From: a virus
IMG/VR virus record: IMGVR_UViG_3300028840_007688
Coordinates: 1-43,397 of that record
DNA length: 43,397 bases
Reading direction: 5' to 3' (one strand)
The notes beneath the pieces are model-generated. The model did not search any database, had not been told where the DNA came from, and worked only from the letters and a program-made list of their open reading frames with translations. Position numbers and translations under genes: made by a program. The number at the start of each line of letters is the position of its first letter. Position 1 is the first letter of the stretch. Shown here piece after piece: positions 4,593 through 39,502 of the stretch.

Positions 4593-4601
4593 TCTTATGA
4601 C
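4593..4601 (-). promoter_or_regulatory. GTCATAAGA box (candidate leftward promoter element)
   Basis: Exact 9-base match to the boxes at 2649, 5873 and 41906. The TAA stop of the 4595-5203 gene lies within it, so the match could partly reflect coding. Unlike the others it lacks an upstream A-tract. Any transcript starting here would meet the terminator at 4557-4528 within about 40 nt, giving only a very short RNA. Weaker candidate than the other three. Confidence 0.3.
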
Positions 4602-5872: not shown

Positions 5873-5898
5873 TCTTATGACGGATTGGGTCGATTTTC
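5873..5898 (-). promoter_or_regulatory. putative leftward phage promoter (GTCATAAGA box with upstream GAAAAT)
   Basis: GTCATAAGA on the minus strand at 5881-5873 with GAAAAT at 5898-5893, an 11-nt gap, nearly the same as at 2649-2675. It lies about 20 nt upstream of the DUF1232 start codon in an 84-nt divergent intergenic region. Confidence 0.55.
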
Positions 5899-5943: not shown

Positions 5944-8900
5944 ATGATCGTAAGCCAGGAGAGATTCGCCGCTCTCCTCAGAAATCTGAAGGATCGTGTC
6001 GAGAGGATGTTCCCCATCAGTGGTGAGCGGAACACGATCTCAGTCTCCAACCTCCGGTGGGCGAACACGAGCCCCGACATGTATGGAGATCCGGAGCTTC
6101 ACAAGAAGTATAAGACCACGGGGAGGACCCTGGCCTCCAGGCTTCTTGGTGATGTCGTCATCACGGACACCAAGAACAACAAGGTTCTCGACCGGCAGTT
6201 GGGGCACCCGATCCTCTCTGTCCCGCATCTCACGAGCAAGCAGTCCTTCATCGTCGGCGGCAAGGAAGTCCAGATTGTCAACCAGATCCGGCTCAAGCCG
6301 GGGACGTACACCAGGTACACGGCCGACAACAACGTGGAGACCTTCATCAACACTGCGGGCGGCGGTTACCGAGTCCAGTTCGACCGCGTGCGGCAGGTCT
6401 TCCGCATTCGTGTGGGCCAGTCCACCTACGTCTACCTCTACCCCATCCTCAAGGCTCTGGGCGTCACCGATGTGGACCTTCGGAAGATCTGGGGCGACGA
6501 GATCCTCCAAGAGAATCGGAAGTACGACCGCCCTGCTGAGTTGGCGAAGCTCTACAAAAAGATGCGACCCTACGCCGACCAGCCGGAGGGTCAGGAAGCC
6601 TTGGCCGAGGCCATCGGAAAGTTCTTTGCCAGCAAACCGCTGGATCCGAACATCACGAAGCTGACGCTTGGGACCCGATACAGCCGCATCGAGCCCAAGG
6701 TCCTTGTGGCTTCGAGCGAGAAGGCCCTGGCTCTGGCTCGCGGAGAGGTGAAGGCCGACGACACTGAGAACCTGGCCTACAAGTCCCTGCATTCGGTGGA
6801 CGATTTCATCGTCGAGAAGCTCGAGCAGAACGTACCGACAGCCGAGAGGTCGATTCGATTCCAGATCGATCGCCGGCCGTCAGTGGTCGACGTGCTTCCA
6901 CCTTCTCTTTTTACCAAGCCCGTGCAGCGGTTCTTCACCACAAGCGAGTTCTCTCGATACAGCGACCAGAATAATCCCCTCGACATGGTGGGCGTGCAGT
7001 CCCTGGTCACGTCCATGGGCGAGGGAGGCATCTCCTCCGTACACGCGGTAAGTGACCGACTCCGTGCCCTGCACCCGAGCCACCTGGGGATCTTCGACCC
7101 TGTTCAGACGCCAGAGTCGAGCAAGATCGGCATCAATGCCCATCTCGCTCTCGGTTCCAAGAAGATCGGGAACGACATTGGGCTGACGGTGATCAACGCC
7201 AAGACGGGCGCGAGAGAGACGAAGAAAGCCTTCGACCTCGAGGACAAGGTGCTCGCGTTCAACGATGAGTTCGACACCACCAGGACGCCGCCGAAAGCGC
7301 GGAGAGATCCGGTCAAGGCCCGGTACAAAGGCGAGTTCAAGATGATCCCCGCACGTCAGGTGGATTACATCGTGGACAGCGCCTCCAAGATCCTCAGTTT
7401 CGCGGCCAATGCCGTCCCCTTCGTTCACACGAACAGCCCCAACCGGATCCTCATGGCGAGTCATCACATCACCCAGGCCGTGCCGTTGAAGGACCCGGAC
7501 GTGCCCCTCGTTCAGTCCAAGTTCGGAGCGCGGGGCTACGAGACGGCTGTTGGCGAGCGTATCGTGCCCCAGGCTCCAGTGGACGGTGTGGTGAAGCGTG
7601 TCACTTCGAAGAAGATCACGATTCAAGGGAACGATGGGCAGACGTACACCGTCCCGCTCCACGATCACTACCCGCTCAATTCGAACGCTTTCCTGAACGA
7701 GAAGGCGATTGTGAAGACGGGAGACCGTGTGCGGAAGGGTCAGCCGGTGGCCGATTCCGACTTCACGCGTAACGGCGCCTTGGCTCTCGGGAAGAGCCTT
7801 CGAACGGGATTCATGCCTTACAAGGGGTACAACTTCGAGGACGGTATCGTCGTCTCGGAGACTGCGGCCAAGAAACTCACCTCGGTGCATAAACACGAGA
7901 TGACCCTGAACCTGGACTCTACGATCAGCGTGGGGCTTCCGGTATTCCTGGCTCACTTCCCCGCTGAGGCCGAGGGGTTGGACCGGTCGAAGTACGGCCC
8001 CAACGGGATTGTGAAGACTGGCGCCGTCCTCCAGATGGGTGATGTGGCGATTCCAGCCGTGAGAAAGATAAAGGTCCACGAGGAATTCAGCTACGCCAGT
8101 TTGCACCGGTCTCTGAAGCACCAGTGGCAGGATGTGTCGGTTCGGTGGGACAGCGAATACCCGGCCGAGGTGATGAACGTGGTCAAGACGCGAACGTTGG
8201 AGGTCGGAGACAAGCTCTCTCAGAGGCACGGCGGAAAGGGCATCGTCACGATGATCCTTCCGGACAAGGAGATGTATCACGGCGAGGATGGCAAGCCCCT
8301 CGACGTCCTCTTCAATCCGTCCGGAGTCCTTGGCCGGGCCAATCCCGGGGCGTATCTCGAAGCGTCCGCGGGGAAGATCGCCGAGAAGACGGGGAAGCCG
8401 TACCTCGTCCAGAACTTCGGTGGTGTGGCAGACGCCACGGAGCACATTCGTCAGCAGCTCGAGGCCAACGGTCTCAACCGTAACAGTGCCGAACGTCTCC
8501 ACGATCCGACCACGAACAAGTACCACGACAATGTGCAGACGGGAAATCTGCACTTCGTGAAGTTGCGCCACCAGGTCTCGAAGAAGCTGAGCGCCCGTGG
8601 CCACACGACGTATACCCACGACGAATCTCCGGCACGTGAACCTCACGCCAGCCCCATGGCCATCGGGATGATGGAGCTCTACTCGCTCCTTTCTTCCGGA
8701 GGCACGGCGTTTCTGCGGGATGCGGCCACGATCAAGTCCCAGAAGAACGACGAGTTCTGGCGTGCCATCCAGCTCGGCCTCCCGACGCCGCCACCGAAGT
8801 CGCCCTTCGTGGTGAACAAGTTCATGGCTTACATGAAGGGCGCCGGGATCAACGTGAAGCAGGAGGGCAAGAAGCTCAAGGCACTCCCGCTCACTGACGA

Positions 8901-11900
8901 GGATATCCTCGACCAGAGCAACGGGGCCATCACGAGTCCTGGCGTAGTGCGGGCCAACGACTTGGCCCCCGAGCCGCGGGGCCTCTTTGATCGAGGGTTG
9001 ACAGGCGGTTTCGACGGGAACTACTGGAATCACATCGACCTCGAGGGACCCATCGCCAATCCACTCATGGATCAGGCTATCATGGGCGTTCTCAGCCAGC
9101 CCGGGCGTCCGTTCAAGCGAACGCAGTTTAACGGACTCATCAACGGCACGTTGTGGGTCACGCCGGAGGGAGAGATCACCCACGATCACGCACCTCAGAA
9201 CAAGACGGGCGGCGAAGGTCTCAAGATTCTTCTATCGAAGATCGACGTGGACGGAGAGCTGAGGAGTTTGCGGCGCCAGGTCAGCGGGTTGAAGGGGGAT
9301 CGGCGTGACGTAGCCATCAAGAAGCTCCGATATCTCCGTGCGCTCAAGGCTGTGAACCTGACGCCGGCGAAGGCGTACCTCAACTCGAAGGTGCCCGTCG
9401 TTCCGGCCAAGATGCGCCCCATCTACCCCAATCCGGACGGAACGCTGAACGTGGCGGATCCCGTACACGGCTACCGAGAGGTCCTCATGGTGAACAACCA
9501 GATCAAGGACCTCAAGAGCTTGGGTGTGGACGACAAGAACCTTGCTCCACTCCGGGCGCAGCTCTACGGTGCGGTCCGTGGGCTGGTGGGGTTGCAGGAG
9601 CCTCTGACCAGAAGCCAGAATTTCAAGGGATTCCTGGCCACCATCAAGGGACAGCAGAACAAGTACGGCCTCTTTCAAGGTCGTGTGCTGAAGCGCAGGC
9701 AGGACCTCACCGGCCGGTCCACGATCATCCCGGACCCCAAACTCGGCATCGATGAGGCGAAGATTCCCGAGGAAATGGCCTTCACCATCTACAAGCCTTT
9801 CATCGTCCAGAGGATGGGGATGCTCGGGTATCCGCCACTGAAGGCCAGGGAACTGATCGAGAAGCGAGATCCTTCAGCCCTCTCCGCACTCGAGGCCGTA
9901 GTCCGGGAGCGGCCGGTCGTGCTGAACCGAGCCCCGTCCCTCCACAAATTCAGCCTTCTCTCCTTCAAGCCCATGCTCACGAAGGGTAAGGCCATCGAGA
10001 TCAACCCTCTCGTGGTGAAGGGGTTCAACGCCGATTTCGATGGCGACGCCATGCAGGTCCACGTACCGGTGTCGGAGGATGCTCGCCGCGAGGCTACGAC
10101 AAATCTGCTCCCGAGCAACAACCTCTTCAGTCCCCGGGATAACAGCCTGATCCACTCTCCATCGATGGAAATGGTTCTCGGGGTCTACCTCATGACCACC
10201 CCGAAAGGCGCAGCGGTCACTAAGGCGAGCTCAGAGAACGAGGTTCTCCAGATGTACCGGAGCGGCCGCATCAAAGCCAATCAAGCGGTGTCAATTCACG
10301 GGAATCGGATTTGCGCAGGGCAGATCATCTTCAACCAGGCGTTCCCTGTCGGATTCAAACCGGGAAACATCTCGGTCGACAAGGGGAAGCTCATGAAGAT
10401 CATCCATGACGTTGCCAGGAAGAAGCCGGCCGTGGCCGGCCAGGTGATTTCGAAGATCAAGGATCTCGGGAACAAGTACGTGACCGAGATTGGATGGTCT
10501 TTCGACCTGGGCGATCTCTCCTTCCCGAAGAACGAGCGCGACTCCATTTTGGCCAAGGCGAAGAAGAACGCCAAGACCATGGGCTTCGCCAAGGCCTACG
10601 GGCGGGCCCAGAAGGAGATGGAGCGTGCGGTCAAGGCCAAGGTGGACAACCGGATGGTCATCGGAGGTCCACTCTCCGGGGCTTTCGGGAAGTCCAATAT
10701 GATCACCCAGATGGTCGCCTCGCCCGTGGCCGTGACAGATCACGAGGGGAAGATCATCGAGGTGCCCATCGAGAAGTCCTTCTCCGAGGGCATGGACATG
10801 GGCAGCTTCTGGGCCATGATCCCCGGCTCCCGGAAGGGCCTCATGGACCGTACGCTTTCGACGGCTGACACCGGCGCATTCGGAAAGGCGCTCATCGCCG
10901 CTACAGTGGACACGACCATCTCAGCGCGGGATTGCGGGACGACCATGGGTATCGAAATGGGCATCACGGATCCAGAAGCGCTTGACCGGGTCGTGGCCAG
11001 TGGGCCATACCGCGGGAAGATCACCGACCCGCAGCTCATCAGGAACCTCAAGGCGCGCGGCGTGAAGAAGATCAAGGTTCGGTCTCCCCTACGGTGCCAG
11101 GCCACTCGGGGCGTCTGCGCCATGTGCTTTGGTCCGTTGGAGAACGGAAACCTCCCCAACGTGGGTTACCATGTCGGAACACTCGCCGGTCAAACGATTT
11201 CGGAGCCGGCAACGCAGCTCACGATGAAGACGTTTCACACGGGCGGCGCCCTGGGCGGTGCAAGTTTGGGCTACCCCAGGCTGAAACAGATCCTTGAGAT
11301 GCCCACCAATGTGAAGGGCCGTGCCATTTTGGCACTCCAGGGCGGAAAGATCGACAGCATAGAGACTTCCGCCGCTGGCGGCTGGAACGTGAGTGTCGCG
11401 GGAATGCGACACTTCGTGCCCAAGGAGGTCGGTCTGGGCGTGAAGAAGGGTCAATCCGTTCGAGCCGGTCAGATGCTCTCGGCTGGCGGGGCTGTCAAGC
11501 CTCAGGATGTCCTCGCGGCCACCAACGACATCCACGTCGTTCAGGAGAGAATGATCGGTGACATGAGCCGGGTCTTCACCGACGCCGGCGTCCGGGTGAA
11601 GCGGAAGATCTTCGAGACTGCCATCCATCCACTCACGACACGGGCCCAAGTGGACGAGCCGGGCGATGCAGACGTGGAGTTCGGGGTGCACCGAGGCGAC
11701 GTGATCTCCGTGAACAATCTGGAGGCCATGAACAAGAAGCTGCGGAAGAAGGGAAAGCAGCCCATTGTGTTCACGCCTACGCTCTTGTCCATCAGGAAGG
11801 CTCCTCAATACGCGAACGACTTCATCGGTCAGCTCGTAGCCGAGCGGCCCCACCAGACACTCAAGGCCGCCCCGGGGCTCGGAGCCGTTTCCAACATCGG

Positions 11901-12105
11901 TCCTGGTGGCCATCCCATTGCTACGTACGCTTTCGGAAAGTACTTCAACACGAAAGTGGACCAGAACATGTCCAAGGTGGCTCTCACCCGTGAGATCGAC
12001 TCTATAATGTCCCTGATGGTCGAGCCCGAAGAGGTTGTTCATTCCGATCTCGACGGGGACGTGAGTGCGGCTCTACAGGAACTTGTGGACAAGCTCGAGG
12101 AGTGA
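5944..12105 (+). CDS. single-chain DNA-directed RNA polymerase, fused beta and beta-prime, 2053 aa
   Basis: One uninterrupted reading frame carries both large subunits of a bacterial-type RNA polymerase. Beta part, about residues 1-980: FIVGGKE in the N-lobe, the rifampicin-region DQNNPL (341-346), HPSHLG..TPESSKIG, GYNFEDG (628-634), and GDKLSQRHGGKG with Lys757 and Lys765 at the spacing of E. coli K1065/K1073. Beta-prime part, about 985-2053: LTGRS, RPVVLNRAPSLHK, the catalytic NADFDGD (1362-1368; D1364, D1366, D1368), a four-cysteine zinc site (RDCGT, then CQATRGVCAMC) and the trigger-loop region LTMKTFHTGG. The N-terminal beta-prime zinc site is absent. E. coli beta plus beta-prime total about 2750 residues, so this is a compact version. 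The ATG follows GAGGTGG. It heads the rightward block; alpha and omega are not seen. Identity is certain from motifs; autonomous activity is inferred. Confidence 0.97.
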   Translation: MIVSQERFAALLRNLKDRVERMFPISGERNTISVSNLRWANTSPDMYGDPELHKKYKTTGRTLASRLLGDVVITDTKNNKVLDRQLGHPILSVPHLTSKQSFIVGGKEVQIVNQIRLKPGTYTRYTADNNVETFINTAGGGYRVQFDRVRQVFRIRVGQSTYVYLYPILKALGVTDVDLRKIWGDEILQENRKYDRPAELAKLYKKMRPYADQPEGQEALAEAIGKFFASKPLDPNITKLTLGTRYSRIEPKVLVASSEKALALARGEVKADDTENLAYKSLHSVDDFIVEKLEQNVPTAERSIRFQIDRRPSVVDVLPPSLFTKPVQRFFTTSEFSRYSDQNNPLDMVGVQSLVTSMGEGGISSVHAVSDRLRALHPSHLGIFDPVQTPESSKIGINAHLALGSKKIGNDIGLTVINAKTGARETKKAFDLEDKVLAFNDEFDTTRTPPKARRDPVKARYKGEFKMIPARQVDYIVDSASKILSFAANAVPFVHTNSPNRILMASHHITQAVPLKDPDVPLVQSKFGARGYETAVGERIVPQAPVDGVVKRVTSKKITIQGNDGQTYTVPLHDHYPLNSNAFLNEKAIVKTGDRVRKGQPVADSDFTRNGALALGKSLRTGFMPYKGYNFEDGIVVSETAAKKLTSVHKHEMTLNLDSTISVGLPVFLAHFPAEAEGLDRSKYGPNGIVKTGAVLQMGDVAIPAVRKIKVHEEFSYASLHRSLKHQWQDVSVRWDSEYPAEVMNVVKTRTLEVGDKLSQRHGGKGIVTMILPDKEMYHGEDGKPLDVLFNPSGVLGRANPGAYLEASAGKIAEKTGKPYLVQNFGGVADATEHIRQQLEANGLNRNSAERLHDPTTNKYHDNVQTGNLHFVKLRHQVSKKLSARGHTTYTHDESPAREPHASPMAIGMMELYSLLSSGGTAFLRDAATIKSQKNDEFWRAIQLGLPTPPPKSPFVVNKFMAYMKGAGINVKQEGKKLKALPLTDEDILDQSNGAITSPGVVRANDLAPEPRGLFDRGLTGGFDGNYWNHIDLEGPIANPLMDQAIMGVLSQPGRPFKRTQFNGLINGTLWVTPEGEITHDHAPQNKTGGEGLKILLSKIDVDGELRSLRRQVSGLKGDRRDVAIKKLRYLRALKAVNLTPAKAYLNSKVPVVPAKMRPIYPNPDGTLNVADPVHGYREVLMVNNQIKDLKSLGVDDKNLAPLRAQLYGAVRGLVGLQEPLTRSQNFKGFLATIKGQQNKYGLFQGRVLKRRQDLTGRSTIIPDPKLGIDEAKIPEEMAFTIYKPFIVQRMGMLGYPPLKARELIEKRDPSALSALEAVVRERPVVLNRAPSLHKFSLLSFKPMLTKGKAIEINPLVVKGFNADFDGDAMQVHVPVSEDARREATTNLLPSNNLFSPRDNSLIHSPSMEMVLGVYLMTTPKGAAVTKASSENEVLQMYRSGRIKANQAVSIHGNRICAGQIIFNQAFPVGFKPGNISVDKGKLMKIIHDVARKKPAVAGQVISKIKDLGNKYVTEIGWSFDLGDLSFPKNERDSILAKAKKNAKTMGFAKAYGRAQKEMERAVKAKVDNRMVIGGPLSGAFGKSNMITQMVASPVAVTDHEGKIIEVPIEKSFSEGMDMGSFWAMIPGSRKGLMDRTLSTADTGAFGKALIAATVDTTISARDCGTTMGIEMGITDPEALDRVVASGPYRGKITDPQLIRNLKARGVKKIKVRSPLRCQATRGVCAMCFGPLENGNLPNVGYHVGTLAGQTISEPATQLTMKTFHTGGALGGASLGYPRLKQILEMPTNVKGRAILALQGGKIDSIETSAAGGWNVSVAGMRHFVPKEVGLGVKKGQSVRAGQMLSAGGAVKPQDVLAATNDIHVVQERMIGDMSRVFTDAGVRVKRKIFETAIHPLTTRAQVDEPGDADVEFGVHRGDVISVNNLEAMNKKLRKKGKQPIVFTPTLLSIRKAPQYANDFIGQLVAERPHQTLKAAPGLGAVSNIGPGGHPIATYAFGKYFNTKVDQNMSKVALTREIDSIMSLMVEPEEVVHSDLDGDVSAALQELVDKLEE

Positions 12106-12106
12106 G

Positions 12107-13534
12107 ATGCTGCGATCGGGACTGTTCGGCGATTCAGCGCAAGAAGCGGCGTTCAACATGGGTTTCGTGCGCACGTACGATCCCGGCGTGAACACGTACC
12201 GAATCGCTCTCGATGGGAAAAGTGAGGGGATCGCTCGCCCAATCATGAGCGGTGCCTACAAGCCGTACCCTGTCGGCACTCGGGTGGCCTGTATCAAGTT
12301 TGCCACGTCAAGCTGGCTCATTCTCGGCGAAGTTGCTTCGTCAAGGGCGCCCACGAAGGAAAGAGAATCTCCTGCGGGTGCCGTGTACCAGAAGGACCTC
12401 GAGCTTCGTAGGGCCCTCCACGACCGATACAGCATCGACATGGCTGACTTCGGGGAATATGTTATTGACCCACCGTTGGAGGGCGATGTGGTCATGCAGA
12501 ACCGGGATGATCCTCGTAGTTATCACCAGATCTACGAGAACGGTGACATCCTCTCCCTGGCCTCGAACTTCTGTTTCCGTCTTCTGAGTCGGGTGAAGAG
12601 TCTTGCGGTCACTTGGGCCAAGGATTGCTGGCAGATCTTCGCCGGATACAGCTTTAAGGTCCAGACCGACGACAAGACCAAGCAGGCCACGACCACCATC
12701 AGCATCAACAGTGATCCATCCGACGAAGCTGACCGTGACGTGGATATCGTCGCTGGCGCAGTTTCGAACGGGAACCGCCCCACCAAGAACGTCTCTGTGG
12801 AGACAAAGGGGCAGACCATCTCCGAAGGTGTGTGGGCGCTCTTGGGGACGCACGCGCTGCTCGAGGTGGATAATCAGGCCAAAGAGGTCAGACTCTCTAA
12901 GGTGGCGATTCAGGCCGGACAGGACACGTTCGGCAAGGATGCCCAGTTCCGGATGAACGAAAACCAAATCGGTCTCGTTTGGGGGGACAACAAGGTCGTT
13001 CTGAGCGACAGCATGCTTGTGCTCAAGCGGAAAGGTCGCTCGATTCTCATGGACGACAAGCGCATCTCACTCACGTGGGCCAGCGATAAGTTCATCGCTC
13101 TGACGGACAAGGGTGTTCAGATCGCTGGGATGCTCGAGATCGTGGGCGGCCAGCTAAAATTCAACAGCCAGTCGCCCATGGCGTCGTCGCTCGTGGTGGA
13201 CGGCGAAAGCATTCAGGTTCCGGAGGGCACCGACGGGGTGCCCAACCTGACGTACCAGGTGTCTGGTGACAAGCTGGACATCAGCGGAAGCGGGGAGCTG
13301 ATGGCGATCAATCTGAACACGGATCTTTCGGTCAGGGGTATGGGTCTCGTGGACGAGAGGTTCCTGACCAAGTACGATGCGGACATGAGCGCCATTAAAC
13401 TGCACACTCATCCCGTTCTCATCACGCCCGGTACGCCGCCGACGGCCCTTCAGTCAACGGACATCCAGCAGACGTTGGATCAGCCGCAGGCATCGTCGTC
13501 GAGCAAGGTACTGACTTCGAAAACGCTGTCGTAG
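12107..13534 (+). CDS. probable baseplate central spike (gpV / VgrG-like), 475 aa
   Basis: Residues about 14-80 look like the OB-fold of gpV-type spikes (GFVRTYDPGVNTYRIALDG, then a YPVGTRVACIKF strand). Residues about 215-370 are short beta strands with regular Asp/Gly turns, as in a trimeric beta-helix spike. Near the C-terminus is KLHTHPV; HxH motifs of this kind coordinate iron at spike tips in some phages. The start is ATG at 12107, one base after the polymerase stop, with GAGGAG upstream. Spike identity is a structural-pattern inference rather than a close match. It is the first virion gene and is likely co-transcribed with the polymerase. Confidence 0.62.
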   Translation: MLRSGLFGDSAQEAAFNMGFVRTYDPGVNTYRIALDGKSEGIARPIMSGAYKPYPVGTRVACIKFATSSWLILGEVASSRAPTKERESPAGAVYQKDLELRRALHDRYSIDMADFGEYVIDPPLEGDVVMQNRDDPRSYHQIYENGDILSLASNFCFRLLSRVKSLAVTWAKDCWQIFAGYSFKVQTDDKTKQATTTISINSDPSDEADRDVDIVAGAVSNGNRPTKNVSVETKGQTISEGVWALLGTHALLEVDNQAKEVRLSKVAIQAGQDTFGKDAQFRMNENQIGLVWGDNKVVLSDSMLVLKRKGRSILMDDKRISLTWASDKFIALTDKGVQIAGMLEIVGGQLKFNSQSPMASSLVVDGESIQVPEGTDGVPNLTYQVSGDKLDISGSGELMAINLNTDLSVRGMGLVDERFLTKYDADMSAIKLHTHPVLITPGTPPTALQSTDIQQTLDQPQASSSSKVLTSKTLS

Positions 13535-13543
13535 GAGCGAGTC

Positions 13544-15091
13544 ATGGAAAATCTCTTCATCACGGAGAAAGTGCTCGGCACCTTCGAGAAGGAAGCCAAC
13601 GTCAAGCTGAGCAAGAACCCGGACGAGTGGATGCAGGAGGTGGTGAAGTTCCTCCACCAGTCCTATCCGTGGCTCGCCAACGCCAAGGTCCAGGTGAACT
13701 TCAACCGGGTGGACGCGGAGAACGGTGCCGGCGTCGGGCAGATCCAGCTCGATGACAAGGTATCGATCCCTCTCGTGGTGGACAACTTCCGCCTCTCCCC
13801 ACTCGACGTTTTCTGGGTGAACGGAAGGCTCCATCCGCTCACCAAGTCGTCGCTCCAGGAGATCGTTCAGGGAACGACCCTGGGCAAGCCCGTGGAGCCC
13901 GGGGAGGGTGCCGCGAGCGACATGGCCCTCTTCTCCCGGACGCAGCCGCCCTACGATGGCCGTTACGTCTATGCGGCCAAGATCGACCTTCCCTTCGAGT
14001 CTTTCGAGAGGGAAGCCCAGCTCGCCTTCGGATCTCAGGAAGCGCTCGAGTGGGCCATGCGAAAGAACGCCTCGTTCCGCCAGGTCTTCGCCGACAATGC
14101 TCGTGCGTCGAAAGAGGCCGAGAAGACGTCGGCAGTGGCCGGCCCCAAGGCCACGGACATGCTCAAGCGCAAGGCGCTCCCGGTGAAGATCCGGAAGCCT
14201 CAGATCACGAAGGCCGGCGTCTTCAAGGTCGCCATGGGCAACGAAGACACCACGTGCATCGTGGCCGATCACATCTTCGGTCTGGACGGGAAGGTGCGAG
14301 ACGGCGTCATGGGCGTCTTCGAACTCGGCGGAGATCGGTACTACTACGCCAGCGACCCGATCTTCGGTGAAGAGGTGGCCCTCGACAAGACCGCCTCTTT
14401 CGGGAAGGACCCCAACGGGTGGGGCGCCTTCGTTCTCCAGAAGAACGGAAGCATCATCGCCACCGAGCCCGTGAAAGTGGTGGGTCGCGCAACGATGCCG
14501 GGCGGCATCGACAAGATCGCGGTGGACTCCATTTACGGCACGCGGGAGATTCACGTCTCGCCCAACATCAAGAACATCCACATGGACGACCAGGGTGGTC
14601 TCTTCATCAGCCAGGACTGGTCTTTCGTTCCCTGCTCGAAGATGGCGAAGCTCGGTTCTTACGAGCCCGTGACCATGGAGAAAGACGCCAGCGCGAAGGA
14701 ACAGCCGCGACCGGCGTTCCGAGGCTCCTACCCCAACCTCATGAAAGAGGCAGCCTTCGTTCAGCCGGTGAGCGGCAAGTGGCTGCCCCTCTCCACGGTG
14801 GACGGCCAGAAATTCGTGAAGATCGCCCTGGACGTGGACGACGACGAGGCGAAGAACACCGTCGACGCCATGCTCGGGTTGAACTTCATCACCGAGGAGA
14901 ATGCCTACAAGTTCGTGGACCAGATCGAGAAGCTCGGTCAGGCGAAGGAGGCGTGCGCGAAACTCCTCCTGGCGTCGAGGCTGGGCCTGCCCGTCTCCCA
15001 GGAGCCCCTGAAGACGGCCATGTACGCCTTGGACAACGCGGAACGTGACCTGCGGCAGTACAGCCACACCATCATGGAAAGCGAGGGTTGA
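13544..15091 (+). CDS. uncharacterised phage protein, 515 aa, probably structural
   Basis: No family recognised. It is a mixed alpha/beta protein with several Lys-x-Ala sites (FEKEAN, LDKTAS, MEKDAS) like those in neighbouring virion proteins. The N-terminal ~170 residues (FVVDNFRLSPLDVFWVNG-like, PFESFEREAQLAFG) and a beta-rich middle (DDTTCIVADHIFGLDGKV-like) suggest more than one domain; the last ~70 residues are helical. ATG at 13544 follows TAGGAGC. GC-rich third positions suggest good expression. Position between spike and terminase favours a baseplate, head or connector role. I do not see convincing portal features. Confidence 0.8.
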   Translation: MENLFITEKVLGTFEKEANVKLSKNPDEWMQEVVKFLHQSYPWLANAKVQVNFNRVDAENGAGVGQIQLDDKVSIPLVVDNFRLSPLDVFWVNGRLHPLTKSSLQEIVQGTTLGKPVEPGEGAASDMALFSRTQPPYDGRYVYAAKIDLPFESFEREAQLAFGSQEALEWAMRKNASFRQVFADNARASKEAEKTSAVAGPKATDMLKRKALPVKIRKPQITKAGVFKVAMGNEDTTCIVADHIFGLDGKVRDGVMGVFELGGDRYYYASDPIFGEEVALDKTASFGKDPNGWGAFVLQKNGSIIATEPVKVVGRATMPGGIDKIAVDSIYGTREIHVSPNIKNIHMDDQGGLFISQDWSFVPCSKMAKLGSYEPVTMEKDASAKEQPRPAFRGSYPNLMKEAAFVQPVSGKWLPLSTVDGQKFVKIALDVDDDEAKNTVDAMLGLNFITEENAYKFVDQIEKLGQAKEACAKLLLASRLGLPVSQEPLKTAMYALDNAERDLRQYSHTIMESEG

Positions 15092-15591: not shown

Positions 15592-16616
15592 TTACACGAG
15601 TCCAAATCTGCGAGAAGTACGGCATTTCGCCGGCCACTTTCAATGAGGTCCAGGATCTCTTGAAGGCGAAGCCGCAGGCGAAACACGGCCGCATCCTCTA
15701 CAAGATCGATCCACGCGACGACTTCATCCTCAGATGCGCCAAGAATCACATCTACAGTTTCGGGGGGAGCGGGCGCGAGAACGGCCACATTCTTCCGTTC
15801 CACCGTTTCCTCTGCCTCAAGTTCCTCACCACACCACAGAAGGAGGCCGTGGCCGAGATCCATCAGCGCAACCTCGCGTCCCCCAAGTTCGGGCTCGGTT
15901 ACTACAAGAAGCTCGAGAAGCGGTTCCTGTCCAGGATCCCGAAGGAACTCAAGGACACGGTGAAGAAACGCAAGGCTCCGTCGGCGAAGCAGAAAGGCGC
16001 CTATGAGATGCTCCTTCGGGTCATCGGCGTCATCGTCCCGTATTCGAACCCCTTGTGGATGGATAATTTCTTTTCGTTCCTGGGTGACGCCAAAACCAAG
16101 AACATCATAGAGAGCGTTGTGACCACGCGAGGGACCCGGGCCGACCATCAGGCCGCTATGGAGGAGCTCTCCGGACAGCAGTGGAAGAATGTGGCGCTCG
16201 ACCTCTACATGTCTGTTTTTTACGACATCGCGCCCATGACCGAGCGTGACTGGCGGTACTACCTGGGCATCATCCTACCCACCGAGAGGAAGGCGAAGAG
16301 CAAAGCCAGGGGGATGACCACAGGCGAACTGCGTATTCGCGAAGGGAAGGAGCCTCACTTCCAGGAGACGCTGCGCATCGTGGCTGTCGATCTCGAGAAG
16401 AAGATTCTCGCGACGTTGGCTATGAAGGGGGAAGGATTCAAGCACGTTCACCAGCACCTCAACTCTTACACCAAGGTGGGTGTGACGCGCGGAGACGTGG
16501 ACAAGCCTGTCCAAGGTGGCTCGTTCTTCCAGAACATTTCCATCGTCGCTTCCGACAGGGAGTTCAAATCCATCAACGCGGAGATTCAGGGGCAGTTGGC
16601 TGATGGCAGGTCATAA
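15588..16616 (+). CDS. DNA-binding-like protein upstream of terminase, 342 aa
   Basis: Residues 1-27 (VQICEKYGISPATFNEVQDL) have the look of a helix-turn-helix. The remainder is helical and basic with no recognised domain. The gene overlaps the 5' end of the large terminase gene by 14 nt. A helix-turn-helix protein immediately before TerL is a candidate small terminase or packaging recognition subunit, but at 342 residues it is larger than most, so this is only positional inference. Confidence 0.7.
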   Translation: MITRVQICEKYGISPATFNEVQDLLKAKPQAKHGRILYKIDPRDDFILRCAKNHIYSFGGSGRENGHILPFHRFLCLKFLTTPQKEAVAEIHQRNLASPKFGLGYYKKLEKRFLSRIPKELKDTVKKRKAPSAKQKGAYEMLLRVIGVIVPYSNPLWMDNFFSFLGDAKTKNIIESVVTTRGTRADHQAAMEELSGQQWKNVALDLYMSVFYDIAPMTERDWRYYLGIILPTERKAKSKARGMTTGELRIREGKEPHFQETLRIVAVDLEKKILATLAMKGEGFKHVHQHLNSYTKVGVTRGDVDKPVQGGSFFQNISIVASDREFKSINAEIQGQLADGRS

Positions 16617-18480
16617 CGACGGCTGGTTTATCGAGGACGGCACGGTCAATCCTCGAGAGATTAACTTCGTCGACGAAGATGGAAATCTGATCATCGGCAT
16701 GGGGGAGGCAGAGCAGGAGTCTCTCTACGATGAAGAGGCTACACGGGATGTAACCACACTCTCTGATCTCATTCCGGAAATCATCCACGTCGAGAAGGGC
16801 TGGCCGTTCCGATACGTCGATCACATCAAGCAGATGGACGGCTCGGTCATTCGTCACGATCGTTCCTACCTCAAACCCATCTACGACCTGAGCGTCAAGC
16901 ATCCAGAGGGCTCGCGGAACATGGTGCTCATGTGGGCTCGGCAGTGCGAGAAGAGCACGACCGCGGCCTGTAAGTCCATCGCCCTCATGGCCTCCATGCC
17001 CAACATGAAGGCCCTGTTCATCCAGCCCAGGTTCAGCCAGGTCTCCGTCTTCAGCCAGCAGCGTTTCAAGAAGATCGCTGAGGACTCTCCGCGTATTGCT
17101 GCTGAGATGCTCTCCACCATGAACATCTGGCAGGTGGGGATGAAGGAGTTCAACAACGGAGCCTATGCGAACTTTCGATCCTGCTATTTGACAGCCGACG
17201 CCACTCGCGGTGTTTCGGCCGATCTGGTCAACATCGACGAGATTCAGGACATCATCTCCGACGAAATTCCCGTTATCGAGGAGACCCAGTCACACGCCCT
17301 ACCAGATCGGTTCTTCCGGATCTATACGGGGACGCCAAAGTCGAAGATGAACGTGCTGCCCAGGCGCTACGATCAGACGAGCCAGTTCGAGTGGATGGTC
17401 AAGTGCAGCCACTGCTCTCACTGGAACTACCTGGACGAAAACGTCATCGGCGACTTCTTCTTCATCTGCACGCGATGCGGGAAGGAAATCTTTCCGAAGA
17501 AGCACAAGAATCCGCGGGACCCGAATGATTTCGGCGGTGAGTGGGTGGCCATGCGGCCGAGCAAGCTGGACGAGAGCTTCGGCTTCAGGATCAGCCAGAT
17601 CCAGGTCCCCTTCCAGTCATTCAAGCGAGTTCACTCCAAACTCCACGATCCAGAGGTCCCTTTCTCCATTTTCCAGAATGAAGCGCTCGGCCTCCCCAGC
17701 GAGGAGGGCGAGCTTGTCCTCACCGAACAGGACATCCGAAATGCCTGCGAGGAGGAGCGGAAGTCGTGGGACCGTCCAGATGGTCTTCGCCGGGTAGGGC
17801 GGCCGATGTTCATGGGCATCGACCACGGTACCGGTCTTCGATCTACGGACACGCAGGGGAAGAAGAGGAAGAAACGTGCGTTCACCGTGGTGGTCGTCGG
17901 TACGTTCGGCGCCGACGAGAAGTTCCGGATTCATTACATGGAGAAGTACCTGGGCGAGAAATCGGACCTGGTTCAGCAGCCCTTCCATTTCGACAAGCTC
18001 GCCAGGCAGTTCCAGGTGGCCTTCTGCGGATCGGACTATGGTTTCGGCCACATCAACAACGAGCACCTCGTGGACAACTACGGGTGGAAACCGGTGGATG
18101 TGGGCACACCGGATCCTGTCTTGCTCGAGTTCCAGTCCACGCAGCAGCGCGCCCTTGTGAAGTTCGATCCCAAGGCGGGCAAGTACGGCCGATACCTGAT
18201 CGACCGGTTCCAGAACATGCGGGATGTGATCGACACGATCAAGAAGGCCCGCATCCGGTTCCCTTGCTTCGAACTCATGAAGAACGACCCCAGCCCCAAG
18301 ATGCCCATGATCGACGACTTCACCTCGATCTTCATCGAGTACGACGACTATCATCAGACCATGCGCTACGACCACACGCTCCCCGACGATGCTTTTCAGG
18401 CGACGATGTACTGCTGGCTGGCAGCCAAGCAGTATTACGGGGACTACGCCAGGACGATCGTTCCGGCTGTTCGGTCTTGA
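16603..18480 (+). CDS. terL: terminase large subunit, 625 aa
   Basis: DNA-packaging motor ATPase and nuclease. ATPase: deviant Walker A ARQCEKST (112-119) with Glu where Gly is usual, Walker B VNIDE (209-213), coupling motif TGTPKS (242-247). A zinc ribbon follows: CSHC (268-271) and CTRC (289-292). RNase H-like nuclease: acidic residues at D407 (MGIDHG), D478 (CGSDYG) and D595/D596 (PDDAF). Start ATG at 16603 gives a product of normal TerL length; the longer frame from 16516 overlaps the previous gene and reads poorly. It would work with a portal, which is not recognised in this window. Confidence 0.93.
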   Translation: MAGHNDGWFIEDGTVNPREINFVDEDGNLIIGMGEAEQESLYDEEATRDVTTLSDLIPEIIHVEKGWPFRYVDHIKQMDGSVIRHDRSYLKPIYDLSVKHPEGSRNMVLMWARQCEKSTTAACKSIALMASMPNMKALFIQPRFSQVSVFSQQRFKKIAEDSPRIAAEMLSTMNIWQVGMKEFNNGAYANFRSCYLTADATRGVSADLVNIDEIQDIISDEIPVIEETQSHALPDRFFRIYTGTPKSKMNVLPRRYDQTSQFEWMVKCSHCSHWNYLDENVIGDFFFICTRCGKEIFPKKHKNPRDPNDFGGEWVAMRPSKLDESFGFRISQIQVPFQSFKRVHSKLHDPEVPFSIFQNEALGLPSEEGELVLTEQDIRNACEEERKSWDRPDGLRRVGRPMFMGIDHGTGLRSTDTQGKKRKKRAFTVVVVGTFGADEKFRIHYMEKYLGEKSDLVQQPFHFDKLARQFQVAFCGSDYGFGHINNEHLVDNYGWKPVDVGTPDPVLLEFQSTQQRALVKFDPKAGKYGRYLIDRFQNMRDVIDTIKKARIRFPCFELMKNDPSPKMPMIDDFTSIFIEYDDYHQTMRYDHTLPDDAFQATMYCWLAAKQYYGDYARTIVPAVRS

Positions 18481-21635: not shown

Positions 21636-22607
21636 ATGCGCGACGGAATGCAGGTCACGTGGCGCGGGCGAATCGGGCCCGCAACGCTCAGCAAGCCCGA
21701 GGCTCAGGGCTCCAGCGAGATCTCCGCGCAAGAGGAGTACGAGTCCGGAGCTGGTCGCAAGGTTCCTTCGCCTGCACGTCAGGAGCGCCAAGAGATCCTA
21801 CGCGGCATCGGTCTCAAGGCCCAGGCTAACGACCGATCTCTCCGAGACAAGGTGGTCCGTGGTGGCGGCGTCAAACCAACGCGCCGGAAAGCATCCAAGT
21901 ACAAAATTCTTTCCACAAGAGCGATCCCACAGTGGGGCGACACGAACGTGAGCCTCGTCGGGGATGGAACGGATGCTCTATCCAAGGAGGGCGGGGCTCT
22001 CGATTGGTTGAAGGGGCTGACCGCCACTCCGCCCAAGGCTCCTGTCGTGTCCAAGCCAGCGGGATCGGCTGTCCCGGGTGGCGAGGCGATGTGGAAGAAG
22101 TTTCAGGCGGGGCTCAAGGTTCCCAAGCCCGGCACTCCTGCTGTGCCCAAGGCAGCAAGACCGAGTCAGGCCCCAATTACTCAGAAAAAGTTCCAGAGTA
22201 TTCTCAGACAGCAGAAGGCGGTGGAGGCCGACCCTCTCGGCGTCGCCCAGCAGCAGGGGATGAAGGTGGGGCCGTGGGCGAAGATCGTGAACAACCCCTG
22301 GGGGAGCATGCTCCTCCAGATGGCTGCCATGAGCGCTATCGAACCCATCATGTATGGGCTGGGGGTTCGCAGCCCGATCTTGGGCGGTGTGCTCCCGCTC
22401 ATCGCGATGCAGGGGCTCCCTGGGATCCTTCAGGAGTCGGCTGGCATCCCCCGCCTGCAAAATGTTCTCATGCGGCGAGCGGAACGCGGTAGACTGAAGA
22501 TGCCGACCGCTGCACCCCCGGCGGCGGCGCCACAACCTGCGCCCCTCACTGGAATGACCAATACGGCGAGTGTGGCTATACCTCGAGTGACCACGGTGTT
22601 CGGATGA
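21636..22607 (+). CDS. Pro/Ala/Lys-rich protein with hydrophobic segment, 323 aa
   Basis: N-terminal ~200 residues are low-complexity and basic (PKAPVVSKPAG, KVPKPGTPAVPKAARP). Residues about 226-268 (MLLQMAAMSAIEPIMYGLG and LPLIAMQGLPGI) are hydrophobic and could span or insert in a membrane; the tail is Pro/Ala-rich. The stop overlaps the ATG of the protease gene. No family recognised; probably another internal virion protein. Confidence 0.76.
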   Translation: MRDGMQVTWRGRIGPATLSKPEAQGSSEISAQEEYESGAGRKVPSPARQERQEILRGIGLKAQANDRSLRDKVVRGGGVKPTRRKASKYKILSTRAIPQWGDTNVSLVGDGTDALSKEGGALDWLKGLTATPPKAPVVSKPAGSAVPGGEAMWKKFQAGLKVPKPGTPAVPKAARPSQAPITQKKFQSILRQQKAVEADPLGVAQQQGMKVGPWAKIVNNPWGSMLLQMAAMSAIEPIMYGLGVRSPILGGVLPLIAMQGLPGILQESAGIPRLQNVLMRRAERGRLKMPTAAPPAAAPQPAPLTGMTNTASVAIPRVTTVFG

Positions 22608-24139
22608 TCGACAAGAGAGCAAATCTGATCCTCTCTCCGGAGATGGAGAAGCACGTGGCCCCCGCATACGATGCCAGGTGGGGCCCGTCCTATCTCCCGA
22701 TCCATTCGCGCGTCTTCGAGAAGACAGCGTCCGAGGTCTACATTCCGGAGCGTCTCATCAAAGCTGCGGCCTCCCTCTCTCCGAGGGAAGACGGTAGATA
22801 CGTGCACATCAACGCCGTGGGTGCTACCGAGGCATGGGGGAGCAACAAGAACGGCGACAGCTTCTGGGAGTGGTCTCTCCTTCATGAGCCGCCCCCTCCG
22901 GACATCCAGGCGTTCCTCAGAAAGACCGGCCGTCCGATTCCTCCGGAGTACGGTATCAGCACCTTCGAGACTTATGCCTACCCGTTCGTCCTTCACAACA
23001 ACAAAGACCCGAAGTTCTCCATCGGGGAGAAGGTGATTTGCGCGGCATACAACGAGAAGATGCGCCGCGGAGAGCTCATCGTTTTCATTCGAAAGGATCC
23101 ACCAAGGGACGGCGTTGGTCTTTCCGCCCCGGATCTCGTGGGCATGATCGACCGTGGTGAGCCCATTCCGTGGTCCATGGGTTGCAAGGTCGCGTTCGAC
23201 GTTTGCTCCATCTGCAAGAATGTGGCGAAGAATCGGAACCAGTACTGTGAGCATCTTCGGACGCTGTTGAACGTCACGCTTCCAGACGGAAGAAAGGTCG
23301 CGGCAGAAAACTGGTTCCCGAGGTTCTTCGATATTTCGAGAGTAATCACGCCAGCATTCGCTCCAGCGTATTCCCTTCGAAAAGTCGCCGGCGTTCATCT
23401 TCCAACAGCCGACCCCACGGTTGTCCAACGTCACGAAGATTACACCATTCGTAGTGTCGACTTCGTGAAGGTTGCCTCGGCGCAGGAATCCATGCGAAAG
23501 AAAAGAACGATCTTCAAGCTTGGCGAGATCAGCAAAGAAGTCCCAGCCGAACCTGGCCAGGACAATCTCGGCAAGACTCTGCTCAAGCCGAAGGCACAGA
23601 AAATCCTCTCGAACCTCGTGAAAGAGGATGACAACGCGTCGAGGTGCATTCCGGCCGTGTCCCTCAAATCGATGCGCCAAACGATGTCTCCGGAGGAAAT
23701 CTTTAACGGCGCAACAGCATCGGGTATCCTTCTCAAGAAACCCGAAGTGGAGATCATCACAGAGGGAGACTCGGAGAAAGTTCCGGAACGACTTGACTTG
23801 GATTCAGTACTCCCCAGACTCCTATCGAAGTTCAAAGAGTTGATCCCGAGCAGGAGTTTGTTTGATCCGCCATTTGCCAAACGCGTGGTCAGGATTATAA
23901 GAATCTCAGGACCAAAGCCGGGGGCGGCTCTTGACAAGGGGGCAAGCGAAGTCTACGACAAGTACCTGGAAGCACTCGGGCGACTGGATGTCGAAGACCT
24001 GGTGAAAGCAGCAGAGAAAACTTTGCTGATTCGTGACCCCGACGCGGTTGAAAATGCTTTGGCGGGGATTAAAACTGCGAGTGACAGGTTCCGGCCGGTG
24101 ACGCCTTTCCTGGTCGGGTTGAAGATGAAAAAGGTTTGA
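22604..24139 (+). CDS. probable head maturation (prohead) protease with Cys cluster, 511 aa
   Basis: The N-terminal half matches the pattern of large-phage prohead proteases as I know it: SNKNGDSF, then FVLHNNKDP with H131, and PWSMGC with S191, a His-Ser pair at plausible spacing for the assemblin/S78-like fold. A Cys/His cluster follows (C201, C204, C215, H217), then FFDIS and SLRKVAG. Two sites, KTASE near residue 42 and KGASE near 447, could be self-cleavage points. The C-terminal ~200 residues are helical and of unknown role. Such enzymes trim scaffold, capsid and internal proteins during head maturation. Position before the acidic protein and major capsid gene fits. Catalytic residues are inferred, not proven. 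Confidence 0.66.
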   Translation: MIDKRANLILSPEMEKHVAPAYDARWGPSYLPIHSRVFEKTASEVYIPERLIKAAASLSPREDGRYVHINAVGATEAWGSNKNGDSFWEWSLLHEPPPPDIQAFLRKTGRPIPPEYGISTFETYAYPFVLHNNKDPKFSIGEKVICAAYNEKMRRGELIVFIRKDPPRDGVGLSAPDLVGMIDRGEPIPWSMGCKVAFDVCSICKNVAKNRNQYCEHLRTLLNVTLPDGRKVAAENWFPRFFDISRVITPAFAPAYSLRKVAGVHLPTADPTVVQRHEDYTIRSVDFVKVASAQESMRKKRTIFKLGEISKEVPAEPGQDNLGKTLLKPKAQKILSNLVKEDDNASRCIPAVSLKSMRQTMSPEEIFNGATASGILLKKPEVEIITEGDSEKVPERLDLDSVLPRLLSKFKELIPSRSLFDPPFAKRVVRIIRISGPKPGAALDKGASEVYDKYLEALGRLDVEDLVKAAEKTLLIRDPDAVENALAGIKTASDRFRPVTPFLVGLKMKKV

Positions 24140-26394: not shown

Positions 26395-27585
26395 ATGTCG
26401 GATACGGGCGCGTTCAACGCCGAGCAGTTCAACACGCTGTTCGGGCAGACCCTCGAGGTCGGCGGCGAGGCGCTCACGAAGCTCGGACAGGCCAGCGGCC
26501 TGTACATCCAGCAGAAGCTCCGTGAGAACGCTTTCTGCCGCAAGATCCTGCCTCCGAAGGTCGTGACGGAGAAGGAGTGCCAGCGGAGGATCGAGGACGA
26601 AGGTCTCGAGTACATCGACGACCTCGAGCCGGATTCCATCGCCATGCACATCAACTGGCGCGGCGAGCCGGAGAAGACCTACATCCAGGCTCCGCGGTAC
26701 AAGATCGTGTTTCACACGATCTCCTCGGACAAGATCATCAAGTCCGAGCAGGAGCTCCGCTCCTACCGCATGCCCCTCACCAAGATCCTGGAGCAGAACA
26801 TCGCCAAGGACATCCAGGAGCAGGAGGACTTCACGTTCATGCAGCACGTGAAGTCGGGGCTTTTCCTGGGCACCCGGTACAACTACAACAAGCTCGTGCA
26901 GCGCGGCGTCGTCGCCGGCGGCACGAGGAACTTCGGCGATCAGGCCGAGTTCATGCGCTTCCTCTTCCAGAGGGCCAAGGGCGCCGGCGCGTGGGCCCCG
27001 ATTCCCACGGCCAACCTCAACCGGGCGGACGCGATCTACTCCAACATCATCCTCTCCGACGAGGACGACTGGAACCGCGTGGTCCTGAAGGACCTCGTGA
27101 AGATCCCCGCCGCGCGCCAGCAGAAGGCGCGTACCTTCCTCCTCCACGAGGTCACCTGGACCGACACCGTCGCGTGGTCGCTGACGGAGGCCGGCCTCGA
27201 GATCACGAGCGAGATCGTCCGCGACGGGTACAAGTACACGACCGTGGGCGGCTACACCTTCGTGACCACGATCCGGGACAACGACGACCTCGTCGAGCCG
27301 GGCGTCATCTACGTGTTCCCGGCCCCCGAGTTCATCGGCCGCTTCATGGTCCTGGAGAACACCAAGTTCTTCATCGACAAGCGGAGCCGCTGGATCGAGA
27401 TGGAGGCCTGGGAGGACGTCGGGGCCGGCTTCGGCAACATCCGCGCCCTCGGCGCCATCCTGCTCAAGGGAGCCAGGATGACGTTGCCGGTGACGTTCCA
27501 GACGCCCGCGGGCGTCACGGCCTCGGCCGGGAACTTCACCATCATCAACGACAACCTCCAGGCGGCGCTGCCGGCCGTGGTGTAA
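26395..27585 (+). CDS. major capsid protein (probable HK97 fold), 396 aa
   Basis: Identified by context and character: 396 residues, extreme preference for C/G third positions, an AGGAGG ribosome binding site, and a strong terminator immediately after. The N-terminal ~60 residues are helical; later parts are mixed alpha/beta (VVLKDLVKIPAAR, FLLHEVTWTDTVAW, YTTVGGYTFVTT). No cleavage-type KxAxE site is seen near its N-terminus, so delta-domain removal is not predicted. The name relies on synteny rather than recognised motifs. Confidence 0.78.
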   Translation: MSDTGAFNAEQFNTLFGQTLEVGGEALTKLGQASGLYIQQKLRENAFCRKILPPKVVTEKECQRRIEDEGLEYIDDLEPDSIAMHINWRGEPEKTYIQAPRYKIVFHTISSDKIIKSEQELRSYRMPLTKILEQNIAKDIQEQEDFTFMQHVKSGLFLGTRYNYNKLVQRGVVAGGTRNFGDQAEFMRFLFQRAKGAGAWAPIPTANLNRADAIYSNIILSDEDDWNRVVLKDLVKIPAARQQKARTFLLHEVTWTDTVAWSLTEAGLEITSEIVRDGYKYTTVGGYTFVTTIRDNDDLVEPGVIYVFPAPEFIGRFMVLENTKFFIDKRSRWIEMEAWEDVGAGFGNIRALGAILLKGARMTLPVTFQTPAGVTASAGNFTIINDNLQAALPAVV

Positions 27586-39470: not shown

Positions 39471-39502
39471 GACGGGTCCTTCGGGGCCCGTCTTTCTTTT
39501 TA
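39471..39502 (+). terminator. intrinsic terminator with UUCG loop ending the virion block
   Basis: A 9-bp stem (39471-39479 with 39484-39492, one wobble) closed by TTCG and followed by TTTCTTTTT. A weaker 7-bp hairpin precedes it at 39436-39458. It separates the rightward virion block from the convergent sigma factor gene, whose stop lies within its T-run. Confidence 0.92.

What the first reader, a model, noticed from the sequence alone, without database searches (positions are those of the whole stretch)
5944..12105. Phage-encoded single-chain beta/beta-prime RNA polymerase
One frame of 2053 codons encodes a complete-looking bacterial-type core: beta motifs (DQNNPL, GYNFEDG, paired Lys757/Lys765) followed by beta-prime motifs (LNRAPSLHK, NADFDGD, TMKTFHTGG). 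phiKZ-type phages encode these subunits split over several genes, and YonO/crAss-type single-chain enzymes are far more diverged. A fusion that stays this close to cellular RNAP, in beta-then-beta-prime order as in natural bacterial fusions (Helicobacter, Wolbachia), inside a virion gene block is unusual and may represent a distinct lineage of viral RNAP.
Basis: partly seen in the sequence, partly recalled or inferred. Interest (0 to 1): 0.88.

Follow-up and report, generated by a model that had tools for sequence, protein, structure and literature searches.

The report
Single-chain phage RNA polymerase family
This bacterial virus carries a gene in which the two large halves of a cell-type RNA-making enzyme are joined in one protein; it belongs to a widespread family of such virus enzymes that has probably been sampled in print before, though I found no account of the joining and of the parts that are missing.

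Summary
In detail: window 5944-12105 (+) is one intact 2053-codon frame that encodes a full-length beta followed by beta-prime, with the catalytic residues tested in place. I found no sign of an assembly join or of a recent host capture. A 99% copy lies in a second virus record of 130,894 bp, and three alignment-based IMG/VR scans gave 166, 260 and 99 relatives (overlapping). Of the first 83 family loci examined, 63 hold one complete frame. The fused phage rows form one clade outside the sampled Bacteria (support 100); a place beside CPR-type bacteria is not rejected. The build differs from bacterial rpoBC fusions: almost no linker at the joint, the N-terminal zinc ribbon of beta-prime missing in 69 of 69, no alpha or omega found in 45 records. 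A sigma factor is clear in the window and in 11 of 45 records. Carriers share a gpA-type terminase and give no match to the Gp23 capsid Pfam. A deep phage clade of cellular-like RNAPs (mReC) was published in 2020, so the lineage is probably known; I found no paper describing its single-chain build. Best reading: a sigma-dependent phage RNAP, encoded at the head of the virion block. Activity, alpha-independence and packaging are inferred.

The parts
5944..12105 (+). Single-chain beta/beta-prime RNA polymerase, 2053 aa
8212..8238 (+). Codons of Lys757 to Lys765, the catalytic lysine pair of beta (E. coli-type K1065, K1073)
8851..8898 (+). Beta/beta-prime joint (residues 970-985), almost no linker
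8980..9033 (+). Place where the N-terminal zinc ribbon of beta-prime is missing (residues 1013-1030)
   Evidence: (segment print)
10027..10047 (+). NADFDGD active-site motif (residues 1362-1368)
10933..11127 (+). Second zinc site of beta-prime, Cys1664, 1718, 1725, 1728 (E. coli-type C814, C888, C895, C898)
11209..11247 (+). Trigger-loop start, ATQLTMKTFHTGG (residues 1756-1768)
12107..13534 (+). Gene directly downstream of the RNAP, start one base after its stop; no PHROG family, no Pfam family over its cut-off; homologues in 4 loci
13544..15091 (+). Gene with a homologue 63 to 8754 bases downstream of the RNAP in 56 of 65 family loci that have over 4 kb of downstream sequence; no PHROG or Pfam hit
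16516..18480 (+). Terminase large subunit, gpA type (phrog_675, PF05876)
22604..24139 (+). Possible head maturation protease (PHROG hit E 2e-4; homologue of Arash gp222, annotated structural protein)
26395..27585 (+). Major capsid protein (phrog_2522 hit E 6e-6; homologue of Arash gp226, annotated major capsid protein)
39500..40462 (-). Sigma-70 family factor, regions 2 and 4, region 3 below cut-off; homologue of the sigma factors of Arash and D69

Best explanation
The gene encodes an active DNA-dependent RNA polymerase of cellular type in which beta and beta-prime are one continuous polypeptide. The fusion lets the core form without alpha or omega, because the two halves no longer have to be brought together by an assembly platform. 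The core pairs with a phage sigma-70-like factor (39500-40462 here) to recognise phage promoters and transcribes phage genes, most likely middle or late ones; its own gene heads the virion block. The fused form is ancestral to one large clade of tailed phages with a gpA-type terminase; in the Vibrio D69 / Salmonella Arash branch beta-prime was most simply re-split later, behind the catalytic barrel. Shown: intact frame, catalytic residues, fold of the modelled parts, fusion and missing zinc ribbon across the family, clade, neighbours, no alpha or omega gene found. Inferred: activity, working without alpha, use of the phage sigma, timing, and whether the enzyme is packaged in the virion.
For: Catalytic residues across 69 family sequences: beta-prime D460/D462/D464, R425, R352, K334, R780 and H936 in 69 of 69; beta K1073, R1106, R678 and D814 in 69 of 69, K1065 in 64 of 69 (4 gaps, 1 other letter). 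AlphaFold models: residues 455-1560, pLDDT 85.1, pTM 0.71; residues 1-1000, pLDDT 82.3, pTM 0.75. Matches: bacterial beta with Z 35.4, 840 residues aligned, rmsd 3.5; bacterial beta-prime with Foldseek E 1.3e-39 over 686 columns, TM-score 0.44 of the query. One complete frame in 63 of 83 loci and in 73 of 79 of a second set, 44 of them not seen before. Alpha PF01193 0 of 45 and omega PF01192 0 of 45, controls 13 and 14 of 14. Sigma: regions 2 and 4 in the window's gene; phrog_351 at E below 1e-19 in 11 of 45 records, including D69, D181 and Arash, which also carry annotated sigma factors. Clade support 100.
Against: No biochemistry or expression data exist here. Most of the 45 records are IMG/VR records that may be fragments, so absence of alpha and omega is firmest for the whole isolate records D69, D181 and Arash. 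At the loose threshold phrog_351 matches 22 of 45 and Sigma70_r4 16 of 45 (9 over the cut-off), but archaeal controls, which have no sigma factor, ring too (3 of 4 and 4 of 4), so weak matches prove little; 23 of 45 have no phrog_351 match. Host alpha and omega could still bind. The beta-prime clamp helices, where sigma region 2 docks in bacteria, are quite diverged (segment print). A gene inside the virion block also fits a packaged virion polymerase. The beta-prime part behind residue 1560 was not modelled.
Confidence: 0.68

Rival explanations
1. It is a virion polymerase: packaged in the particle and injected to transcribe early phage genes, as in N4, phiKZ and P23-45.
For: Its gene heads the structural block and part of the downstream order is conserved: a conserved unknown gene in 56 of 65 loci, terminase homologues in 45 loci, 42 of them downstream, a capsid gene homologous to D69 and Arash. 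In Arash it lies between a portal gene and structural genes.
Against: It would need sigma co-packaging or sigma-free initiation; no particle proteomics were available; a place in a late operon equally fits a late-made, non-packaged enzyme.
Confidence: 0.3
2. Recent capture of a host rpoB-rpoC pair, possibly from a bacterium with a natural fusion.
For: The best solved-structure matches by sequence are bacterial RNAPs; the AU test does not reject a place beside Peregrinibacteria (p 0.095) or beside that row plus one unclassified MAG row (p 0.066).
Against: Bacteria and the fused phages are each one clade (support 100 and 100; 99 and 100). Placement with the two Bacillota rows (p 4e-5), the two Gammaproteobacteria rows (p 2e-4) and Kosmotogaceae (p 0.019) is rejected. 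Scores are far below the NCBIfam cut-offs for bacterial fusions. The zinc ribbon is absent in 69 of 69 family sequences.
Confidence: 0.04
3. Chimeric assembly or decayed, inactive relic.
For: None found.
Against: Same gene and neighbours in L001 (99%; whether its assembly is independent is not known) and in a 64% relative, L062; no stops; catalytic residues intact.
Confidence: 0.02
4. It works as a beta/beta-prime chain that recruits host alpha and omega, i.e. a takeover core rather than an alpha-free enzyme.
For: The beta half aligns over 840 residues with bacterial beta, so alpha-contact surfaces could be kept.
Against: The fusion would then bring little (inference); no phage alpha or omega found; phiKZ-type phage RNAPs are described as lacking alpha (PMC7598289, passages).
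Confidence: 0.15

Closest known systems
mReC RNAPs (multi-subunit RNAP-encoding Caudovirales; Weinheimer and Aylward 2020, PMC7481178; parts 1-3 of 6 of the text and find passages read)
   Same: Cellular-like phage beta and beta-prime that form a clade outside cellular RNAPs, near Bacteria; RNAP genes amid virion genes; from metagenomes.
   Different: The main text speaks of beta and beta-prime subunits and uses 'fused' and 'fusion' once each, both for crAssphage. Its eight detected capsids were all PF07068; 0 of 45 records here match PF07068.
phiKZ/AR9-type jumbo phage RNAPs (PMC7598289, passages read)
   Same: Phage multisubunit-type RNAP without alpha and omega.
   Different: There the core is split over at least four or five polypeptides and has evolved fast; here one chain, readily alignable with bacteria, with a sigma factor in the same genome.
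Single-polypeptide two-barrel RNAPs: crAss phi14:2 gp66, P23-45 gp64/gp96, QDE-1 (PMC10770324, passages and section 12 read); YonO (as described in PMC7481178)
   Same: Both catalytic barrels in one chain.
   Different: Those are reported as highly divergent; this one keeps nearly the whole bacterial beta and most of beta-prime by sequence.
Natural bacterial rpoB-rpoC fusions (Helicobacter, Wolbachia: recalled; NCBIfam PRK09603 and PRK14844 tested)
   Same: Beta-then-beta-prime order in one chain.
   Different: Far below the NCBIfam cut-offs; here the zinc ribbon is absent and no alpha or omega gene accompanies it.
Vibrio phages D69, D181, D148 and Salmonella phage Arash
   Same: Same family: beta joined to beta-prime with the same joint and the same missing ribbon (D69, Arash); several virion genes in the same order and a sigma factor.
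   Different: About 29-31% identical; in D69 and Arash beta-prime is cut behind the catalytic barrel into a second gene (1527+609 and 1525+606 aa).

Membership tests
mReC (PMC7481178) | RNAP clade separate from all cellular RNAPs | tested here: met
   Fused phage clade support 100, outside 15 or 14 bacterial rows; a CPR-sister place is not rejected, p 0.066-0.095; only two archaeal rows and no eukaryotic or NCLDV row
mReC (PMC7481178) | Both beta and beta-prime, NADxDGD motif, at least 800 aa | tested here: met
   as one chain
mReC (PMC7481178) | Tailed-phage hallmark genes on the contig | tested here: met
   Terminase; capsid gene by homology to Arash gp226
mReC (PMC7481178) | Capsid of PF07068/VOG11186, where one was detected (8 of 97 contigs in the paper) | tested here: not met
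   0 of 45 records; the same search finds T4 and 7 of 7 other RNAP-bearing phages at E 0.001 or better, 3 of the 7 over the cut-off
mReC (PMC7481178) | Terminase of VOG01069/PF03237 | tested here: inconclusive
   Window: no PF03237 match, PF05876 instead; 14 of 36 fused-lineage records match PF03237 at E 0.001 or better, all far weaker than T4; VOG models not available
mReC (PMC7481178) | Identity with the published contigs (mReC1 to mReC3 are named) | not testable with these tools
   Supplements not held; samples 3300017989 and 3300000786 did not appear in the listed hits of four scans (three of the lists capped at 80)
phiKZ/AR9-type phage RNAP | Beta and beta-prime split over separate genes | tested here: not met
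   One frame
YonO/crAss/QDE-1-type single-chain RNAP | Strong divergence from cellular beta and beta-prime | tested here: not met
   rpoC 2e-150 and rpoB 1.5e-97; Z 35.4 over 840 residues against bacterial beta. No direct comparison with YonO or crAss sequences was made
Bacterial rpoB-rpoC fusion (NCBIfam PRK09603, PRK14844) | Score over the curated cut-off | tested here: not met
   495 of 5372 and 479 of 4632 bits
Functional cellular-type RNAP core | Catalytic aspartates, lysines and trigger-loop histidine | tested here: met
Functional cellular-type RNAP core | Transcription activity | not testable with these tools
   needs purified protein

The most novel reading that the evidence does not exclude
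A large phage clade carries a nearly full bacterial-grade RNA polymerase as one chain that needs no alpha, no omega and no beta-prime zinc ribbon yet works with a sigma factor on phage promoters; the fusion arose once, close to or before the split of the bacterial phyla, and the beta-prime cut seen in some members arose later, showing that split phage polymerases can derive from fused ones.
Probability: 0.28. Interest if true: 0.85.

Novelty: new variant of a known kind. Interest (0 to 1): 0.62.

Why it matters
If the single chain works without alpha, it would be a one-gene form of the cellular-type enzyme that keeps nearly all of bacterial beta, and a simple tool for studying how sigma factors drive such a core. 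The nearly linker-free joint and the loss of the same domain in 69 of 69 sequences date the fusion to the base of the clade, which makes the direction of splitting and fusing in phage RNAPs testable. The family has isolates (Vibrio D69, D181 and D148, Salmonella Arash), so packaging and promoter use can be tested directly. It also gives a marker for a large group of phages with a gpA-type terminase.

Tried and rejected
Recent host capture: disfavoured by the trees and by three of five AU tests; the two CPR-type tests were not significant. Assembly artefact: no support. Same kind as bacterial fusions: rejected. Member of mReC in the strict sense: not filed, because the capsid test was not met, though the RNAP clade probably overlaps; two further scans listed no contig from the samples of the published examples, but their lists were capped at 80.

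Led nowhere: nine paper searches were run. Those aimed at the fusion listed no paper that describes it; I saw only the listings (up to 20 of 25, 24 and 81 papers), and only open PubMed Central papers are held, so a subscription paper, a preprint or a supplement could hold it. The first beta-prime residue table had its numbering off by 14 and was redone; only the beta table and the segment prints are used. The G050 genome (Hydrogenedentota) first looked like a fused bacterial rpoBC (note), but in the fetched stretch its two frames are divided by a stop, so I withdraw that note. The VIA-align listing for the junction model covered mainly its beta part, so the beta-prime part rests on Foldseek (TM-score 0.44 of the query) and on sequence. 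A promoter motif before the plus-strand virion block was looked for by eye and by 8-mer counts and not found.

Tree caveats: one search warns that the long branches of Carin-5/YerA41 and an unclassified row meet and that 19 rows have an odd letter make-up; the two archaeal rows are Woesearchaeota bins; some bacterial rows come from phage-labelled records whose organism is assumed. Rows dropped: 5 near-identical phage rows; 87 rows cut to 49, 40 and 30 for run time; the L001 row was left out as a near copy of the window. Three isolates for which I had beta-prime only were left out. After re-checking, the sigma evidence was lowered (archaeal controls ring too), and for that reason the odds of the best explanation went from 0.70 to 0.68 and of the novel case from 0.30 to 0.28.
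Full report
What is there. The frame 5944-12105 (+) is one intact 2053-codon gene. Its first half is a full beta subunit and its second half beta-prime, in that order. A ribosome-binding-like stretch precedes it, and the next gene starts one base after its stop. It heads a plus-strand block with a terminase, a weakly matched head protease and a capsid gene; the likely genes to its left run on the minus strand. The window is itself a 43,397-bp virus record. A second record, 130,894 bp long, carries the same protein at 99% identity.

It is a family, not an oddity. Among annotated phages the nearest long relatives are Vibrio phages D69, D181 and D148 (29% over 94-95% of the chain) and Salmonella phage Arash (31% over 70%). 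Three alignment-based scans of IMG/VR found 166, 260 and 99 relatives (the sets overlap, and only the best 80 were kept each time). Of 83 loci examined (80 from IMG/VR, 3 from MAG contigs), 63 have one complete frame, 10 one frame cut by the contig end, 8 are split, and 2 show only the first piece. In a second set of 79 loci, 73 are one complete frame, 44 of these sharing no identical 150-base probe with the first set (near copies among the 44 were not removed).

Anatomy. In an alignment of 69 family sequences (the window, 62 further single frames, and 6 split ones joined for alignment) the last part of beta runs into the first residues of beta-prime with hardly any linker. The four zinc-ribbon cysteines of beta-prime (E. 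coli-type C70, C72, C85, C88) are missing in 69 of 69, but present in 14 of 15 bacterial rows (the fifteenth is a fragment) and in 5 of 5 other phages whose beta-prime is a protein of its own. The second zinc site is kept in 65 of 69. The catalytic aspartates, beta K1073, R1106 and the trigger-loop histidine are kept in 69 of 69. AlphaFold models of residues 1-1000 and 455-1560 have mean pLDDT 82.3 and 85.1 and match solved bacterial RNAPs: beta with Z 35.4, 840 residues, rmsd 3.5; beta-prime with Foldseek E 1.3e-39 over 686 columns, TM-score 0.44 of the query. Residues 1561-2053 were not modelled.

Partners. Alpha (PF01193) and omega (PF01192) were found in 0 of 45 records (42 from IMG/VR, with the near-identical copy of the window among them, plus D69, D181 and Arash), while 13 and 14 of 14 control genomes rang. 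A sigma factor (phrog_351) matched in 22 of 45 at E 0.001, in 11 of 45 at E below 1e-19, the three isolates among these; Sigma70_r4 in 16 of 45, 9 over the cut-off. Archaeal controls, which have no sigma factor, ring in both searches (3 of 4 and 4 of 4), so only the strong matches are worth much. The window's own sigma gene at 39500-40462 has regions 2 and 4 over their cut-offs and homologues in Arash and D69. Many records may be fragments, so absence is firmest for the isolate records.

The carriers look like one phage group. A terminase of phrog_675 lies in 39 of 45 records. The gpA-type ATPase (PF05876) lies in 33 of 36 fused-lineage records, 32 over the cut-off, and in 0 of 7 phages with other multisubunit RNAPs; T4 matches weakly. 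The Gp23 capsid (PF07068) was found in 0 of 45 (where no control rang); in a second search T4 and 7 of 7 of those other phages matched, 3 of the 7 over the cut-off, and D69 and Arash did not. The gene at 13544-15091 has a homologue downstream of the RNAP in 56 of 65 loci with over 4 kb of downstream sequence.

Phylogeny. With 49 rows (29 fused phages, 15 bacteria, 2 archaea, 3 others) the fused phages are one clade (ultrafast bootstrap 100) and Bacteria are one clade (100). A mixture model on 40 rows agrees (SH-aLRT 100 and 99). AU tests on 30 rows reject placing the phages with the two Bacillota rows (p 4e-5), the two Gammaproteobacteria rows (p 2e-4) and Kosmotogaceae (p 0.019), but not with Peregrinibacteria (p 0.095) or with that row plus one unclassified MAG row (p 0.066). 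So a very old origin is favoured, but a source near the CPR remains open; the panel is small. The D69/Arash branch, cut behind the catalytic barrel, lies inside the fused clade, so that cut is most simply secondary.

How it probably works. The intact active site, the complete beta and the cellular fold point to a working polymerase. With no phage alpha or omega found, the covalent joint most simply replaces the assembly platform (inference). A sigma factor in the window, in the three isolates searched and, clearly, in eight of the 42 IMG/VR records suggests a sigma-dependent enzyme (inference). The place at the head of the virion block fits late expression and leaves virion packaging open at about 0.3.

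What is known. PMC7481178 (parts 1-3 of 6 and find passages) describes 97 contigs with beta and beta-prime in a deep phage clade. It names three examples, two from IMG sample 3300017989; no contig of that sample was in my listed hits. Its search rules would seem to accept these single chains, so the family was probably in that set (inference), but its main text mentions fusion only for crAssphage. PMC10159854 (passages) places one hydrothermal-mat phage RNAP at the base of that clade. PMC10770324 (section 12 and passages; [quoted passage not shown] PMC7598289 (passages), PMC7824862 (12 of 44 passages) and PMC13282480 (passages from its reference list only) do not describe this build in what I saw. 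The searches aimed at the fusion listed no description. I therefore call it a new variant of a known kind.

Noticed in passing
window 2649-2657, 4593-4601, 5873-5881, 41906-41914 (all -); further sites L318:17903, L319:4434, L320:1902, L320:12936: The 9-mer GTCATAAGA occurs 4 times in the window (0.05 expected; 0 of 100 shuffles reach 4) and at 4 further places in 57 kb of the near-identical record, all 8 on the strand opposite to the virion block and several close before a likely start codon: a candidate phage promoter without a shared -35 element. The word was picked from the same window, and it is not shared by the family: 76 of 80 other loci have none.
   Followed up: partly
L038, L043, L045, L046, L049, L050, L054, L056, L057, L079, L083, L086-L089: 15 of 63 single-frame RNAPs (some near copies of each other) carry one or two intein-like inserts of about 340-530 aa at several sites, some in or near catalytic motifs (NADFDGD, the beta lysine loop); Pfam finds LAGLIDADG in 3 of 3 tested and an intein splicing domain below cut-off in 1.
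   Followed up: partly
L074 and L076, RNAP gene: In-frame TGA codons (4 and 1) inside otherwise continuous RNAP frames suggest phages whose hosts read TGA as an amino acid.
   Followed up: no
L101-L107, L160: Contigs of bacterial MAGs (Armatimonadota, Hydrogenedentota, Poribacteria, Kosmotogaceae and an unnamed bacterium) hold short single frames of about 890-1380 aa that match both the beta lysine region and the DxDGD region: perhaps another group of small fused RNAPs.
   Followed up: no
window 3-824 (-): A tRNA-His guanylyltransferase (Thg1) homologue in a phage, PHROG E 5e-73.
   Followed up: no
L005 11836-17350 (Vibrio phage D181): The fused frame is interrupted after residue 495 of the query by a stretch with an annotated homing endonuclease; in D69 the same region is one frame.
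   Followed up: no
G005, G013, G016, G035 terminase genes: Terminase frames of about 970-1060 aa with a gap in the profile match near position 370, perhaps inteins as well.
   Followed up: no
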